A DNA stretch of 64,000 nt from Chloracidobacterium sp. N. GTDB lineage: Bacteria > Acidobacteriota > Blastocatellia > Chloracidobacteriales > Chloracidobacteriaceae. Shown in pieces: positions 31,715 to 37,314 of this stretch. The position numbers were made by a program, and so were the translations under genes. Below the pieces are notes generated by a model. It was not told where the DNA came from, did not search any database, and was given only the letters and a program-made list of their open reading frames with translations. Location of the stretch: positions 1,641,819 through 1,705,818 of the forward strand of contig NZ_CP072642.1 of NCBI RefSeq assembly GCF_018304765.1, read 5' to 3'. Every line of letters begins with the position of its first letter. Within the stretch, counting starts at the first letter, position 1.

Positions 31715-34513
31715 ATGAAGTTCGCCTTTTTGCGTGGGCTGGCCAGTGTTTGTCTGGCAACCGCCCTGTGCCTGCCAAGTCCCCTGCTGCTTGTGGTCGT
31801 CAAGGCCGACACGCCGGCCAAAACCATCACCCTGCCGCCTGGCGTCACGCGCGTCACGAGTGTGGAAGGCATCACCGAGTACCGTCTGGAAAACGGGCTG
31901 CGGGTGCTGCTCTTCCCCGACGAATCCAAGCAGACCATCACCGTCAACATCACCTATCTGGTCGGTTCGCGTCATGAAAACTACGGCGAAACCGGCATGG
32001 CGCACCTGCTGGAACACCTTGTGTTCAAGGGCACCCCACGCCACCCGGACATTCCCAAGGAACTGACCGAGCGTGGCGCGCGCCCGAACGGGACCACCTG
32101 GCTTGATCGCACCAACTACTTCGAGACCTTTCAGGCAACCGAGGACAACCTCCGGTGGGCGCTCGATCTGGAAGCCGACCGCATGGTGAACAGCTTCATT
32201 GCCAAGAAAGACCTCGATTCGGAAATGACCGTCGTGCGCAACGAGTTTGAGGCCGGGGAAAACAGTCCCTACCGGGTGCTGCTGCAACGCACGCATGCGG
32301 TGGCCTACGACTGGCACAACTACGGCAACTCGACGATTGGCGCGCGGGCGGACATTGAAAACGTCCCCATCGAGCGGTTGCAGGCGTTCTACCGGAAGTA
32401 TTACCAGCCGGACAACGCCGTGCTGCTCGTGGCCGGGAAGTTCGATGAAGAAAAGACCCTGAAGATGATTCACGAGTATTTCGGCCCCATCCCGAAACCC
32501 ACCCGCGTGCTGGAGCCGACCTACACACTCGAACCAACCCAGGATGGCGAACGCACCCTGACGATTCGGCGCGTGGGCGATACCAAGGTCATCCTCGTCT
32601 GCTACCACGTGCCGGCCGCGGCGCATCCCGACAAACCGGCCGTACAACTGCTGGCCGGCGTCATTGGCGATACCCCAAGCGGACGGCTCCACAAGGCGCT
32701 GGTCGAAACCAAAAAAGCCGCCTTTGTGCAGGGCTTCAGCTTCGATACCAAAGAGCCGGGGCTGGTCAATTTTGCGGCCATTTTACCGACCAGTGCTGAC
32801 ATCGAAGCCGTCCGTCAGACCCTGCTGGCGACCATTGAAGAAACTGCCGGCAGCAAGCCGCCGACGGCTGAAGAAGTGGAACGCATCCGGCGGCAGTACC
32901 TGGTCAGCATCGAACAGACCCTCAACAACTCCGAGCGGCTGGGGCTGGAACTCAGCGAGTGGATTGCTGCTGGCGACTGGCGGCTCTTTTTCCTCAATCG
33001 GGACCGGCTCAAGGCCGTCACGGTTGAAGACGTACAACGGGTGGCCAGAACCTACCTCAAGCCCGACAACCGGACGGTTGGCATGTTCATTCCGACTGAC
33101 AAGCCCGACCGGGCCGAAATCCCGCCGACGCCGGACATCACGGCGCTTCTGGCTGATTACAAAGGAAGTGCGGCTGTTGCTGCCGGTGAAGCCTTTGACC
33201 CCACCCCGGAAAACATCGAAGCGCGATCCATCCTGCCCAAAGCCCAGGGTGGTTTACAGATGGTGCTGCTGCCGAAAAAGACCCGTGGCAATACGGTAAC
33301 GTTGACGATGTCCATCCGGTTGGGCAATGAGCAGGCCCTGCGCAACCAGCGGGAAGTCGGATTCTTTGCCGGAGCCATGCTCGACCGTGGCACGAAGAAG
33401 AAAACCCGGCAGCAGATCAGCGATGAATTCGACCGCCTCAAGGCACAGGGGGGCGTTTTCGGCAGCGCCAGGCAAGCGAATTTCAGTGTCACGACAACCC
33501 GCGAGCATCTCGCGGACGTCATGCGGCTGGGCGCGGAAATTCTGCGGGAGCCATCGTTCCCGGAAAGCGAGTTTGAGCAGCTCAAACAGGAGATCATTAC
33601 CAGCACCGAGCAAAACCGCCGGGAACCGACCAGGGTGGCCGTCAGGGCCTTTTCACGCCACCTCAATCCCTATCCCAAAGAAGATGTACGCTATACCCCT
33701 CTGCCAGACGAGGAGATCGAACGCATCAAGGCCGTGACGCTGGACGATGTCAAACGCTTCTATGAAACGTTTTATGGCATCTCCAACGCCCAGATTGCCG
33801 TCGTCGGGGACTTCGATCCGGCTGAAGTTGAAAAACTGGCGACGGAACTCTTCGCCGGCTGGACCGCCAAAACGCCCTTCGCACGTCTGGAAAACCGGTT
33901 TCGTCCCATTCCGGCTGCCGATGAGACCTTTGAGACGCCAGACAAAGCCAATGCCTTCTTCATTGCCGGCATGCCGCTTGAAATGCGCGATGATGACCCG
34001 GACTACCCGGCGCTGGCGCTCGCCGTGTACATTTTCGGCGATGGTTTCCTGAACTCCCGCCTGGCCGTCCGCATCCGGCAGAAAGAGGGCATCAGCTACG
34101 GTGTCGGCGCCGGGTTGCAGGTTGGTTCACTGGACCGCCTGGGCACATTCACCGTCTCGGCCATTTACGCGCCACAAAATCTGGCCCGTCTGGAAGCGGC
34201 CTTCAAAGAGGAAGTCGAGCGTGCCGTGCGTGAGGGCTTCACAGCCGAGGAGGTCGAAACCGCCAAGACGGGCTACCTGCAGGATCAGCAGGTGTCGCGG
34301 GCGCAGGACCGGGAACTGGCGTCAAGACTGGAGAGCTATCTCTATCTCGGACGACGTCCCACCTGGGACGCTGAATTCGAGGCCAAAATCAAGGCCCTGA
34401 CGCCGGAACAGGTCTCGGCGGCCTTTGCCAGGTACATCAGCTATGAGCGGATGAGCCGCTTCAAGGCCGGCGACTTTGCCAAGGCCAAAGAGGCCAAAGC
34501 CACGCAGCCGTAA
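31715..34513 (+). CDS. M16-family metallopeptidase, two-domain, exported
   Basis: A 932-residue protein with a signal peptide (cleavage near residue 30). The first half has the inverted zinc motif HxxEH in GMAHLLEHLVFKGT (about residue 95), with a downstream Glu in EMTVVRNEFE, so this half should be catalytic. The second half repeats the fold (about residues 490-920) without HxxEH, as in other clamshell M16 proteins where it binds substrate. Such peptidases degrade peptides in the periplasm. The start ATG at 31715 is supported by the signal peptide position. The insertion element begins about 30 bases after the stop. Confidence 0.92.
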   Translation: MKFAFLRGLASVCLATALCLPSPLLLVVVKADTPAKTITLPPGVTRVTSVEGITEYRLENGLRVLLFPDESKQTITVNITYLVGSRHENYGETGMAHLLEHLVFKGTPRHPDIPKELTERGARPNGTTWLDRTNYFETFQATEDNLRWALDLEADRMVNSFIAKKDLDSEMTVVRNEFEAGENSPYRVLLQRTHAVAYDWHNYGNSTIGARADIENVPIERLQAFYRKYYQPDNAVLLVAGKFDEEKTLKMIHEYFGPIPKPTRVLEPTYTLEPTQDGERTLTIRRVGDTKVILVCYHVPAAAHPDKPAVQLLAGVIGDTPSGRLHKALVETKKAAFVQGFSFDTKEPGLVNFAAILPTSADIEAVRQTLLATIEETAGSKPPTAEEVERIRRQYLVSIEQTLNNSERLGLELSEWIAAGDWRLFFLNRDRLKAVTVEDVQRVARTYLKPDNRTVGMFIPTDKPDRAEIPPTPDITALLADYKGSAAVAAGEAFDPTPENIEARSILPKAQGGLQMVLLPKKTRGNTVTLTMSIRLGNEQALRNQREVGFFAGAMLDRGTKKKTRQQISDEFDRLKAQGGVFGSARQANFSVTTTREHLADVMRLGAEILREPSFPESEFEQLKQEIITSTEQNRREPTRVAVRAFSRHLNPYPKEDVRYTPLPDEEIERIKAVTLDDVKRFYETFYGISNAQIAVVGDFDPAEVEKLATELFAGWTAKTPFARLENRFRPIPAADETFETPDKANAFFIAGMPLEMRDDDPDYPALALAVYIFGDGFLNSRLAVRIRQKEGISYGVGAGLQVGSLDRLGTFTVSAIYAPQNLARLEAAFKEEVERAVREGFTAEEVETAKTGYLQDQQVSRAQDRELASRLESYLYLGRRPTWDAEFEAKIKALTPEQVSAAFARYISYERMSRFKAGDFAKAKEAKATQP

Positions 34514-34585
34514 AGCCACGGTCAGCGGACAGACTGACATAACCCCTGCCAGGGTTTGAACAGCTTAAATAAAAGTTGACCTTTA

Positions 34586-34846
34586 TTGCTCAGTAGTGTG
34601 CATTTTGCGCATGTCGCGCAAGATAGTCAGCACTTTGGCGCGGAACTGGTGTTCGCCATCTGCGAGGCGAAGAACGTCGCAGTGGTGATCCTAAACCAAG
34701 GCGAGGACACGCGCTTCGAGGAAGACTTGGCGAAGGACGTGCTGGAGATCATCACGGTCTTCAGCGCCCGGTTGTATGGTAGTCGTTCGCGCAGGAATCA
34801 GAAGCTGCTCGATGGCGTGAAGGCCGCCGTGGAGGCTGCGCAGTGA
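34586..34846 (+). pseudogene. C-terminal remnant of an IS607-type serine recombinase (TnpA)
   Basis: Residues 18-86 of this frame match the C-terminal part of IS607 recombinases: ELVFAICEAKNVAVVILNQ, EDLAKDVLEIITVFSARLYG and a final NQKLLDGVK. The N-terminal helix-turn-helix and the catalytic serine of the resolvase domain are absent, and no frame in the 70 bases upstream supplies them. The first 17 residues are unrelated. The TGA at 34844-34846 overlaps the GTG start of tnpB, the usual arrangement in these elements. Confidence 0.75.
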
Positions 34847-36066
34847 TCATCGCACACCGCATCGCGCTCGATCCGAACAACGCGCAGGCAACTTACTTTG
34901 CGCGCGCATGTGGCGTCGCGCGCTTCGCCTACAACTGGGCCTTGGCCGAGTGGCAGCGCCAGTACGAGGCGGCAAAGGCCGATCCAGCGCTGCCCAAGCC
35001 GTCGCAAGCGGCGCTGCGCCGCCAGCTCAACGCCATCAAGTGTGAGCAGTTTCCGTGGATGCTGGAAGTGACCAAGTGCGCGCCGCAGATGGCGATCATC
35101 CAGTTGGGCAAAGCGTTCAGGAACTTCTTTGCGGGCCGGGCCCGCTATCCGCAGTTTCGCAAGAAGGGCGTGCACGACCGCTTTACGCTTTCCAACGACC
35201 AGTTCGACATTGACGGCTGTCGCATACGCATCCCCAACCTTGGCTGGGTGCGCATGCGCGAGTCGTTGCGTTTCACTGGCAAGATCATGTCGGCCACCAT
35301 CTCCCGTGTGGCCGACCGCTGGTATGTCAGCATCACCGTGGACACACCAGACCGTTCGCATCTGCCCAAAGCTGAGAACCAAGGCGCAGTGGGCGTGGAT
35401 GTGGGTGTCTCTGCGCTGGCCACGCTCTCGACGGGAGAGACCATCCCCGGTCCCAAGCCGCACACGGCTTTGCTCAAACGCCTGCGCCGGCTTTCAAAAA
35501 GCCTGTCCAGAAAGTGCAAAGGCTCGCAGAACCGCAAGCGGGCTAAGGCGCGGCTGGCCAAGCTGCATGCGCGCATCGCCAACATCCGCCAGGACGCCTT
35601 GCACAAGCTCACGACCAGCCTCACGCACCGATTTCACACCATCGGCATCGAAAACCTGAATGTGCGCGGCATGGTGAAGAACCGGCATCTGGCGCGCTCC
35701 ATCATGGACATAGGCTTCTACGAATTTCGGCGGCAACTGGAATACAAGGCCGCGATGCGAGGCGGGCAGGTGGTGGTGGCGGATCGCTTCTTTGCCAGCA
35801 GCAAGACGTGCTCGGTATGTGGGCACAAGCTCGATGATTTGCCACTCTCAGTGCGCGAATGGACTTGCCCGGATTGTGGAAGCATCCACGACCGGGACGT
35901 GAATGCCGCCAGGAATCTCCTGGCGTATGGCTTGGCCGCCCTCAGCGGGCCTACGGCGAGTTCCGCCGGATGTCAAGCCTGTGGAGAGGAAGGCTCTGGC
36001 CGCCGTCGCAAGACGGCAGCGAAACCGGCCTCTGTGAAGCAGGAAGTCAGCTTTGTTCCTGTGTGA
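34843..36066 (+). CDS. tnpB: TnpB RNA-guided nuclease of an IS605/IS607-type element
   Basis: TnpB proteins are RuvC-type nucleases guided by an RNA from the element's 3' end and are ancestors of Cas12. The 407-residue protein is full length. The three RuvC acidic residues are present: Asp186 in GVDVGVS, Glu270 in IENLNV and Asp352 in DRDVNAARN. The zinc finger has Cys323/Cys326 (CSVC) and Cys342/Cys345 (CPDC). The C-terminus ends with the basic tail CGEEGSGRRRKT and KPASVKQE common in the group. The GTG start overlaps the recombinase stop. Nothing in the sequence suggests it is inactive. Confidence 0.93.
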   Translation: MIIAHRIALDPNNAQATYFARACGVARFAYNWALAEWQRQYEAAKADPALPKPSQAALRRQLNAIKCEQFPWMLEVTKCAPQMAIIQLGKAFRNFFAGRARYPQFRKKGVHDRFTLSNDQFDIDGCRIRIPNLGWVRMRESLRFTGKIMSATISRVADRWYVSITVDTPDRSHLPKAENQGAVGVDVGVSALATLSTGETIPGPKPHTALLKRLRRLSKSLSRKCKGSQNRKRAKARLAKLHARIANIRQDALHKLTTSLTHRFHTIGIENLNVRGMVKNRHLARSIMDIGFYEFRRQLEYKAAMRGGQVVVADRFFASSKTCSVCGHKLDDLPLSVREWTCPDCGSIHDRDVNAARNLLAYGLAALSGPTASSAGCQACGEEGSGRRRKTAAKPASVKQEVSFVPV

Positions 36067-36114
36067 GCAGGAATGAGTAAGTCTGATGGAACGGTTTGCC
36101 AAACCCTGGCAGGG
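35940..36114 (+). ncRNA. Possible omega RNA (TnpB guide RNA scaffold)
   Basis: By analogy with other TnpB systems, the guide RNA should overlap the last part of tnpB and run to the right end of the element. The region contains a GCCA-TGGC hairpin next to the right inverted repeat. The exact ends are not determined by the sequence alone. Confidence 0.25.
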
Positions 36115-36252
36115 CACACCACCGGGCAGGAATTCCCTGGAACTCGCTTTGATGGTCGTCGTGTGTGAAGGCAGATGACTTCACGCTGTGGGCAGCCCTG
36201 GTGCCCGCACGGTCAGGCTGCCACAAGTTTTTCCATGTTGAGGCTCAACACC

Positions 36253-37314
36253 ATGTCGTCCACCTTGTCGTCGTTCACTCCCGTTTCCCACAGTCCGGCG
36301 CGGCTGATTCGGCGTTTCTGCCAGACTCTGTTGACGCTGGCGCTTCCACTGTCGCTCGCAACGGCCGCACTGGCGGCCGATACCCGGCCGGTGGAGGACG
36401 CACCGGCCGGACAGGGGCCGCAAACGCCCGGCGCGTCACCGGCTGAACCCCGGACGCCCGGCATCTACCTGGGTGTCTTTCCACAAACGCTTTCCGAGCA
36501 GCAGGCAGCAGACCTTGGCGTATCACCGGCCCAGGGGGTACATCTGATGAAGGTCATTCCCAGCAGTCCGGCGGACAAAGCCGGGCTTCAGCGTGGCGAT
36601 GTGATCGTTTCCATCAACGGCCAGCCGGTCGTCAACGTCGAGCACTTCCGGGACCTGCTGCGCAAACAGACGCCGGGACAGGCCATGACGCTGGGCATCG
36701 TCCGCAACAAACAGCTCAACACGGTCACGGTCGTGCCGGAAAAGCCGCAGGTCAGCGTCATGATGCTGCCGGACGGACCATTTTCCATCACCGTCCACCC
36801 GCCACTTGACGCCGCACAGCTCCAGGAAATTAAGGAGATGGCTGAGCAGATGCGCAGGCAGGGTGAACAATTACGGGAAAAACTCAAGCCGCAACCGGAA
36901 TTTTTCACCTTCTCAGTGAGCGACCGGGGACGGCTCGGTATTCGGACGCAGCCGCTGTCCGAACAGCTTGCGCGCTACTTCGGCGCACCTGGCGGTCTGT
37001 TGATTACAGAAGTGAGACCCGGCTCGCCGGCGGACAAAGCCGGTCTGCGCGCGGGAGATTGCATCCTCAAAATCGGCGACCGGGAAGTGCGCAGCAGCCG
37101 CGACCTGCTCCAAGAGTTGCGCCAGGTTGAAACCGGTGACGTCAAGTTGACGCTCATCCGTGACAGACAGCCGCTGGTTGTCACCCTGAAACCGGAGCCG
37201 TGCGCTCCGCAGGGCGCTTACCGGTACGATTTCCGTGTGCCGTTGAACGGGACCATCACCCTGTCCCCCTCCGTGCAGGTCTGGTGGGGAACGCTCATTC
37301 CGGGTCTGATGTGA
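36253..37314 (+). CDS. Exported protein with two PDZ domains
   Basis: The ATG at 36253 is preceded by GAGG at nine bases and gives 353 residues. A signal peptide is followed by a Pro-rich linker, PDZ 1 at about 75-165 (GVHLMKVIPSSPADKAGLQRGDVIVSING shortened: SSPADKAGLQRGD), a charged helical stretch at about 185-220 (EMAEQMRRQGEQLREKL) and PDZ 2 at about 225-320 (GSPADKAGLRAGDCILKIGD). No Ser-protease domain with His-Asp-Ser is present, so it is a PDZ adaptor rather than a DegP/HtrA enzyme. It may bind C-termini of periplasmic proteins. Confidence 0.82.
   Translation: MSSTLSSFTPVSHSPARLIRRFCQTLLTLALPLSLATAALAADTRPVEDAPAGQGPQTPGASPAEPRTPGIYLGVFPQTLSEQQAADLGVSPAQGVHLMKVIPSSPADKAGLQRGDVIVSINGQPVVNVEHFRDLLRKQTPGQAMTLGIVRNKQLNTVTVVPEKPQVSVMMLPDGPFSITVHPPLDAAQLQEIKEMAEQMRRQGEQLREKLKPQPEFFTFSVSDRGRLGIRTQPLSEQLARYFGAPGGLLITEVRPGSPADKAGLRAGDCILKIGDREVRSSRDLLQELRQVETGDVKLTLIRDRQPLVVTLKPEPCAPQGAYRYDFRVPLNGTITLSPSVQVWWGTLIPGLM

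What the first reader, a model, noticed from the sequence alone, without database searches (positions are those of the whole stretch)
34544..36114. Orphaned but intact TnpB in an element with exact 15-bp inverted ends
TnpB keeps all three RuvC acidic residues and its zinc finger while the recombinase has lost its catalytic half. The ends at 34544-34558 and 36100-36114 are exact reverse complements, which is unusual for IS607 elements. A TnpB that outlives its transposase is a candidate for co-option as an RNA-guided regulator or for a selfish maintenance role.
Basis: partly seen in the sequence, partly recalled or inferred. Interest (0 to 1): 0.6.

Follow-up and report, generated by a model that had tools for sequence, protein, structure and literature searches.

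The report
IS607 element inside a gene-end hairpin
A common type of jumping gene, which has lost most of its own moving enzyme but keeps its RNA-guided DNA cutter, landed in the middle of a hairpin at the end of a neighbouring gene, so its striking mirror-image "ends" are the two halves of that pre-existing hairpin and not a feature of the element.

Summary
The sequence facts hold; the reading of the ends does not. The exact 15-bp inverted repeat exists and occurs nowhere else in the genome, but it is not the element's termini. A close relative lacks the element and carries an intact hairpin there (CCCTGCCAGGGTTTGG-TTTG-CCAAACCCTGGCAGGG). Family alignment puts the real borders at 34555 and 36094, at GG cores, so the element sits inside the hairpin. 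Rejoining the flanks gives a perfect 31-nt palindrome. Of 22 family elements with both ends called, only this one lies in a palindrome longer than 4 bp. Four other genus members also have a strong hairpin just after the same upstream gene, so it is probably that gene's terminator. The recombinase lost 388 bp internally. TnpB (D186/E270/D352, zinc finger) and its guide-RNA scaffold are intact. Its predicted guide matches only its own right border in this genome, where the TAM is missing. That fits a self-retention nuclease; no co-opted target was found. TnpB with no or broken TnpA is common in this family (40 of 74 loci) and already published (PMC11061315).

The parts
31715..34513 (+). Upstream host gene, M16-type metallopeptidase (932 aa); the split hairpin lies just after its stop codon
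   Evidence: Pfam Peptidase_M16 / M16_C; ORF
34544..34554 (.). Host-derived part of the left hairpin arm, CCCTGCCAGGG, ending in the GG target core
   Evidence: Close relative's empty site (L064); conserved left ends of relatives start right after GG
34555..36094 (+). The IS607-type element itself (1540 bp), between GG cores; no terminal inverted repeat
   Evidence: Left end TTTGAACAG and right end TGAGTAAGTCTGATGGAACGG conserved in relatives
34555..34632 (+). Left end of the element plus the first seven codons of the recombinase (ATGTCGCGCAAGATAGTCAGC)
   Evidence: Aligns with full-length relatives L103 and L101 up to a 388-bp deletion; sister recombinase starts MSRRMVS
34630..34846 (+). Recombinase (TnpA) remnant: C-terminal part only, after a 388-bp internal deletion with about 3 bp shared at the breakpoint
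   Evidence: NCBIfam transpos_IS607, model 132-187 of 187; deletion mapped
34843..36066 (+). Intact TnpB RNA-guided endonuclease, 407 aa, RuvC D186/E270/D352, zinc finger C323/C326/C342/C345
35970..36094 (+). Predicted guide-RNA (omega/reRNA) scaffold overlapping the 3' end of tnpB
   Evidence: 46-sequence alignment, 40 predicted pairs, 30 with compensatory changes; weak RAGATH-18 match at 35978-36045, 25.2 bits, below the cut-off 44.9
36095..36114 (+). Predicted 20-nt guide, TTTGCCAAACCCTGGCAGGG, which is host DNA and contains the right hairpin arm (36100-36114)
   Evidence: First 20 nt after the conserved right end
36175..37314 (+). Downstream host gene, PDZ-domain protein
   Evidence: Pfam PDZ_6 / PDZ_2

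Best explanation
This is an ordinary IS607-type insertion that carries a TnpB. Its recombinase joined GG-core ends to a (G)GG target in a palindromic hairpin just after an M16 peptidase gene, most likely that gene's transcription terminator. The hairpin was split, leaving its arms on either side as an apparent 15-bp inverted repeat. A 388-bp internal deletion has since removed, or had already removed, most of the recombinase; the order of events is unknown. TnpB and its guide-RNA scaffold stayed intact. Inferred mechanism: TnpB processes the transcript of the right end into a guide RNA whose guide is the host sequence beyond the border, TTTGCCAAACCCTGGCAGGG. It would cut any allele that lacks the element, where CAGGG precedes that sequence, so that repair from an occupied copy restores the element. 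The occupied right border reads AACGG and is spared. Shown here: borders, empty site, hairpin, intact catalytic residues, RNA covariation, absence of other targets. Inferred: transcription, cleavage, retention, terminator function.
For: Empty, unsplit hairpin in relative G001. Element borders fixed by conserved ends: right end found in 73 of 84 loci, left end called in 27. Every called left flank ends in GG, and 23 of 26 in GGG, matching the published (G)GG target preference, absence of terminal inverted repeats and absence of target duplication of IS607 (PMC6188088). Sister insertions L083 and L084 checked against their own empty sites also sit at GG without target duplication. Only the window's element among 22 lies in a palindrome: 14 bp in that test, the rest 4 bp or less. 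A strong hairpin of -25 to -34 kcal/mol, unrelated in sequence except between the window genome and G001, follows the same gene in five relatives. The scaffold RNA covaries. TnpB dN/dS is 0.15 against its nearest relative. Predicted TAM GGG is present on the empty allele and absent on the occupied border, agreeing with the GGG TAM measured for the IS607 element ISXfa1 (PMC10711439).
Against: The relative's empty site is 36 nt, not the 31 nt predicted by rejoining the flanks; it has one extra GTTTG unit. So one small duplication in G001 or one small deletion in the window lineage must be assumed, and G001 could in principle be an excision scar. The hairpin has no T-rich tail in this genome, so its terminator role rests on its position and on relatives. 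The dN/dS value covers time before the recombinase was lost. The predicted guide folds on itself (-7.1 kcal/mol), which might weaken targeting. No expression data were available.
Confidence: 0.92

Rival explanations
1. The 15-bp repeats are true terminal inverted repeats of an atypical IS607 element or of a larger composite element.
For: They are exact, sit within a few bases of the element borders, and are unique to this locus in the genome.
Against: The same two arms sit together, without any element, in the close relative. Related elements share the inner ends but not these arms. IS607 elements have no terminal inverted repeats (PMC6188088).
Confidence: 0.02
2. The TnpB has been co-opted by the host as an RNA-guided regulator.
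For: TnpB is intact, with a history of purifying selection, although its recombinase is gone. Splitting the terminator might let peptidase-gene transcripts run into tnpB (inference).
Against: RuvC residues are intact, unlike known TnpB-derived repressors (PMC13418256). The predicted guide has no other TAM-adjacent site with up to 1 mismatch over the TAM plus 12 nt in the genome. The element is absent at this site in all five other genus members whose intergenic region was read. Young insertions stay intact without being useful.
Confidence: 0.04
3. A simple fossil: the element is in the split hairpin as described, but TnpB is intact only because the deletion is recent, and it does nothing now. 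This rivals only the mechanism part of the best explanation.
For: No sigma-70-type promoter match in 34300-36400. The self-folding guide could be poor. Purifying selection cannot be dated to after the deletion.
Against: Scaffold, ends and catalytic residues are all intact. TnpB-only relatives have evidently spread in other genomes.
Confidence: 0.3
4. The relative G001 is not pristine but is an excision scar of a former insertion, so the hairpin there was re-formed after loss of the element. This rivals only the order of events.
For: G001 has one extra GTTTG unit exactly at the insertion point, and that change also removes the TAM-guide adjacency.
Against: A simple 5-bp tandem duplication explains it equally well. 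G001 retains no bases that can only be element sequence: TTTG is also host sequence.
Confidence: 0.15

Closest known systems
ISXfa1 (IS607 family, Xylella fastidiosa) TnpB and reRNA, PMC10711439
   Same: IS607 GG-core ends, a guide RNA of about 150 nt crossing the right border, GGG target-adjacent motif
   Different: The recombinase here is truncated. Sequence relation to ISXfa1 itself was not measured.
RAGATH-18-associated IS607 TnpBs (ISFba1), PMC11061315
   Same: IS607 TnpB with a structured right-end RNA and a G-rich TAM (AGGAG or GAGGG); about 30% of TnpAs in that set are pseudo-proteins while TnpB is kept
   Different: Only a sub-threshold RAGATH-18 match here, and the RNA overlaps the tnpB coding end, which it does not in ISFba1.
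ISDra2 TnpB (PDB 8bf8, 8exa)
   Same: Same protein family, E = 1e-69, same RuvC triad and zinc finger
   Different: ISDra2 belongs to the IS200/IS605 family with a different transposase and an AT-rich TAM (TAM contrast from PMC11061315).
TldR (TnpB-like nuclease-dead repressors), PMC13418256
   Same: TnpB-derived, keeps a guide RNA, separated from a working transposase
   Different: TldRs have inactivated RuvC domains and host-gene targets; neither was found here.

Membership tests
IS607-type insertion element | IS607 serine recombinase gene upstream of tnpB | tested here: met
   Remnant only, model positions 132-187 of 187; intact in sister copy L014/L083 and in 34 of 74 relatives
IS607-type insertion element | Insertion at GG with no target duplication | tested here: met
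   GG cores at both borders; sister copies checked against empty sites. The window site itself needs one 5-bp indel relative to G001.
IS607-type insertion element | No terminal inverted repeats | tested here: met
   The apparent repeat lies outside the element, except for 4 bases (TTTG) on the left
TnpB RNA-guided endonuclease | RuvC D-E-D triad and zinc finger | tested here: met
TnpB RNA-guided endonuclease | Structured guide RNA at the right end | tested here: met
   Covariation in 46 sequences; transcription not tested
TnpB RNA-guided endonuclease | Guide-directed DNA cleavage next to a TAM | not testable with these tools
   Needs a cleavage assay; sequence is consistent
RAGATH-18 RNA | Match at or above the Rfam gathering score | tested here: not met
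   25.2 bits against a cut-off of 44.9
TldR nuclease-dead repressor | Inactivated RuvC domain | tested here: not met
   All three acidic residues present
TldR nuclease-dead repressor | Guide matching a host target other than the insertion site | tested here: not met
   No other TAM-adjacent match at the mismatch levels searched

The most novel reading that the evidence does not exclude
The palindromic target matters functionally. Rejoined, it offers TnpB two overlapping, oppositely oriented TAM-adjacent sites (0 and 1 mismatch), and the extra GTTTG in the relative is a repair footprint that made its empty allele resistant to cutting.
Probability: 0.07. Interest if true: 0.5.

Novelty: new member of a known kind. 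Interest (0 to 1): 0.2.

Why it matters
It is a clean warning case. Exact inverted repeats around a mobile element can be the split halves of the target, and a target palindrome can mimic terminal inverted repeats almost to the base. It also gives a natural pair of occupied and empty alleles in two close genomes on which the retention model for IS607 TnpB could be tested.

Tried and rejected
Genome-wide search for the 15-mer, to see whether it is a dispersed repeat: only the two arms. Hairpin-loop targeting as a family habit: rejected, 21 other family insertions show junction palindromes of 4 bp or less; flanks of seven copies of a second IS607 element on replicon 2, looked at by eye, show none split by the element. 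Second genomic target of the guide: none. Promoter and terminator pattern scans: nothing. A first attempt to call left ends failed because of a mis-spaced pattern and was redone; a few of those left-end calls in distant loci (for example L118, L138, L148) are doubtful. The L085 row of the dN/dS table is out of frame and was discarded. No structure prediction was run, because the family has solved structures.

Full report
What was checked. The 15-bp inverted repeat at 34544-34558 and 36100-36114 is exact, and its sequence occurs nowhere else in the 3.7-Mb, two-replicon genome even with one mismatch. The ORF at 34843-36066 is a full TnpB that aligns along its length with ISDra2 TnpB; the RuvC residues are D186, E270 and D352, and the zinc-finger cysteines are in place. 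Upstream, only the last part of an IS607 recombinase is recognisable. Against relatives L101 and L103, 388 bp are missing at about 34630-34632, with roughly 3 bp shared at the breakpoint. Since 388 is not a multiple of three, the seven N-terminal codons left at the front are out of frame with the C-terminal remnant. The genome size and two replicons suggest Chloracidobacterium thermophilum; that name is from my own knowledge and was not tested.

Where the repeats come from. The closest held relative, G001 (98% identical in the upstream M16 peptidase), has the same intergenic region without the element: CCCTGCCAGGGTTTGGTTTGCCAAACCCTGGCAGGG. So the two arms exist there as one hairpin. The element's real ends were fixed by comparison: the right end [AT]TGAGYAAGTCTGAYGGAACGG or a close variant was found in 73 of 84 loci, and a left end starting directly after GG with TTTGAACAG or a variant was called in 27 loci. 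Two sister insertions, L083 and L084, were compared with their own empty sites and fit a GG core with no target duplication. This matches the experimental description of IS607: GG exchange site, (G)GG preferred target, no terminal inverted repeats, no target duplication (PMC6188088).

Applied to the window, the element is 34555-36094. The right arm is wholly host DNA. The left arm is host up to 34554; its last four bases, TTTG, are the element's own first bases, which coincide with the TTTG that follows the target GG in the host. Rejoining the flanks at one GG gives CCCTGCCAGGGTTTGCCAAACCCTGGCAGGG, a perfect 31-nt palindrome around one central C. G001 differs from it by one extra GTTTG unit: a tandem duplication there, a small deletion here, or an excision scar. 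The data do not decide.

Is the hairpin a property of the element? No. Among 22 family elements with both ends called, the junction palindrome is 14 bp here by the scan used and 4 bp or less in all others. Is it a terminator? Probably. The five genus relatives read here all carry a strong hairpin of -25 to -34 kcal/mol within about 20-60 nt of the stop codon of the same gene. Apart from G001 these are unrelated in sequence to the window's, and some are followed by T-rich tails. The window genome and G001 have no T-rich tail, so this remains an inference.

What the element does now. The last roughly 125 nt of the element, overlapping the end of tnpB, align in 46 relatives with strong covariation: 40 predicted pairs, 30 with at least one compensatory change. 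The window copy keeps the structure. This is the guide-RNA scaffold expected for IS607 TnpB, where the RNA runs over the border and the host sequence beyond it serves as guide (PMC10711439). A RAGATH-18 match exists but is below the curated threshold. The predicted guide, TTTGCCAAACCCTGGCAGGG, is preceded by CAGGG on the rejoined empty site but by AACGG at the occupied border; the family's left flanks carry GGG in 23 of 26 cases, and GGG is the TAM measured for ISXfa1 (PMC10711439). The genome holds no other match to GGG plus 12 guide bases with up to one mismatch. The only evident target is therefore an allele lacking the element, which is the retention role proposed for TnpB. G001's 36-nt allele has TTTGG before the guide match, so it may escape cutting; this is untested.

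Selection and company. TnpB shows dN/dS of 0.15 against its nearest relative, an 87%-identical protein in a Hydrogenophaga metagenome assembly. On the window's own branch 42 synonymous and 29 non-synonymous changes were polarised. This cannot be dated to after the recombinase was lost. Loss of the recombinase is common here: of 74 loci with enough upstream sequence, 34 had a full recombinase, 8 (the window included) a partial one and 32 none. In one Malikia genome, seven TnpB-only elements, most with a shared left end, sit at different GGG sites, so such forms do spread, presumably helped in trans. A published survey likewise found about 30% of IS607 TnpAs to be pseudo-proteins beside TnpB (PMC11061315). 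The window genome itself has a 75%-identical sister with an open recombinase frame and seven copies of a second IS607 element.

Verdict. Co-option is not supported by anything found. Interest is low; the case is useful mainly as an occupied/empty pair and as a caution about inverted repeats.

Noticed in passing
L064 (G001), M16-PDZ intergenic region: The empty site carries an extra GTTTG unit exactly at the insertion point, which also separates the GGG motif from the guide match.
   Followed up: partly
L007-L013 (replicon 2 of the window genome): Seven 97-99% identical copies of a second IS607 element (about 2034 bp, left end GGAGCCGGACTCTAGCTTGC), all on the smaller replicon.
   Followed up: partly
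L084 (G001): A relative of this element whose tnpB has one in-frame TAG stop, 92% identical at DNA level to the intact sister in the window genome but at a different site.
   Followed up: no
L105, L108, L117, L124, L131, L137, L147 (one Malikia genome): Seven TnpB-only IS607-type elements, most with a shared left end, at different GGG sites and with no recombinase within 1.1 kb upstream.
   Followed up: partly
L154, L161 (Thiothrix): TnpB-only elements with only about 154 nt between the left end and tnpB, nearly the same in two species; a compact form that has moved.
   Followed up: no
window 34514-34543 against L064: The roughly 30-40 nt between the peptidase stop and the hairpin differ strongly between the two close genomes, although the right flank is 98.9% identical over 1.3 kb.
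   Followed up: no
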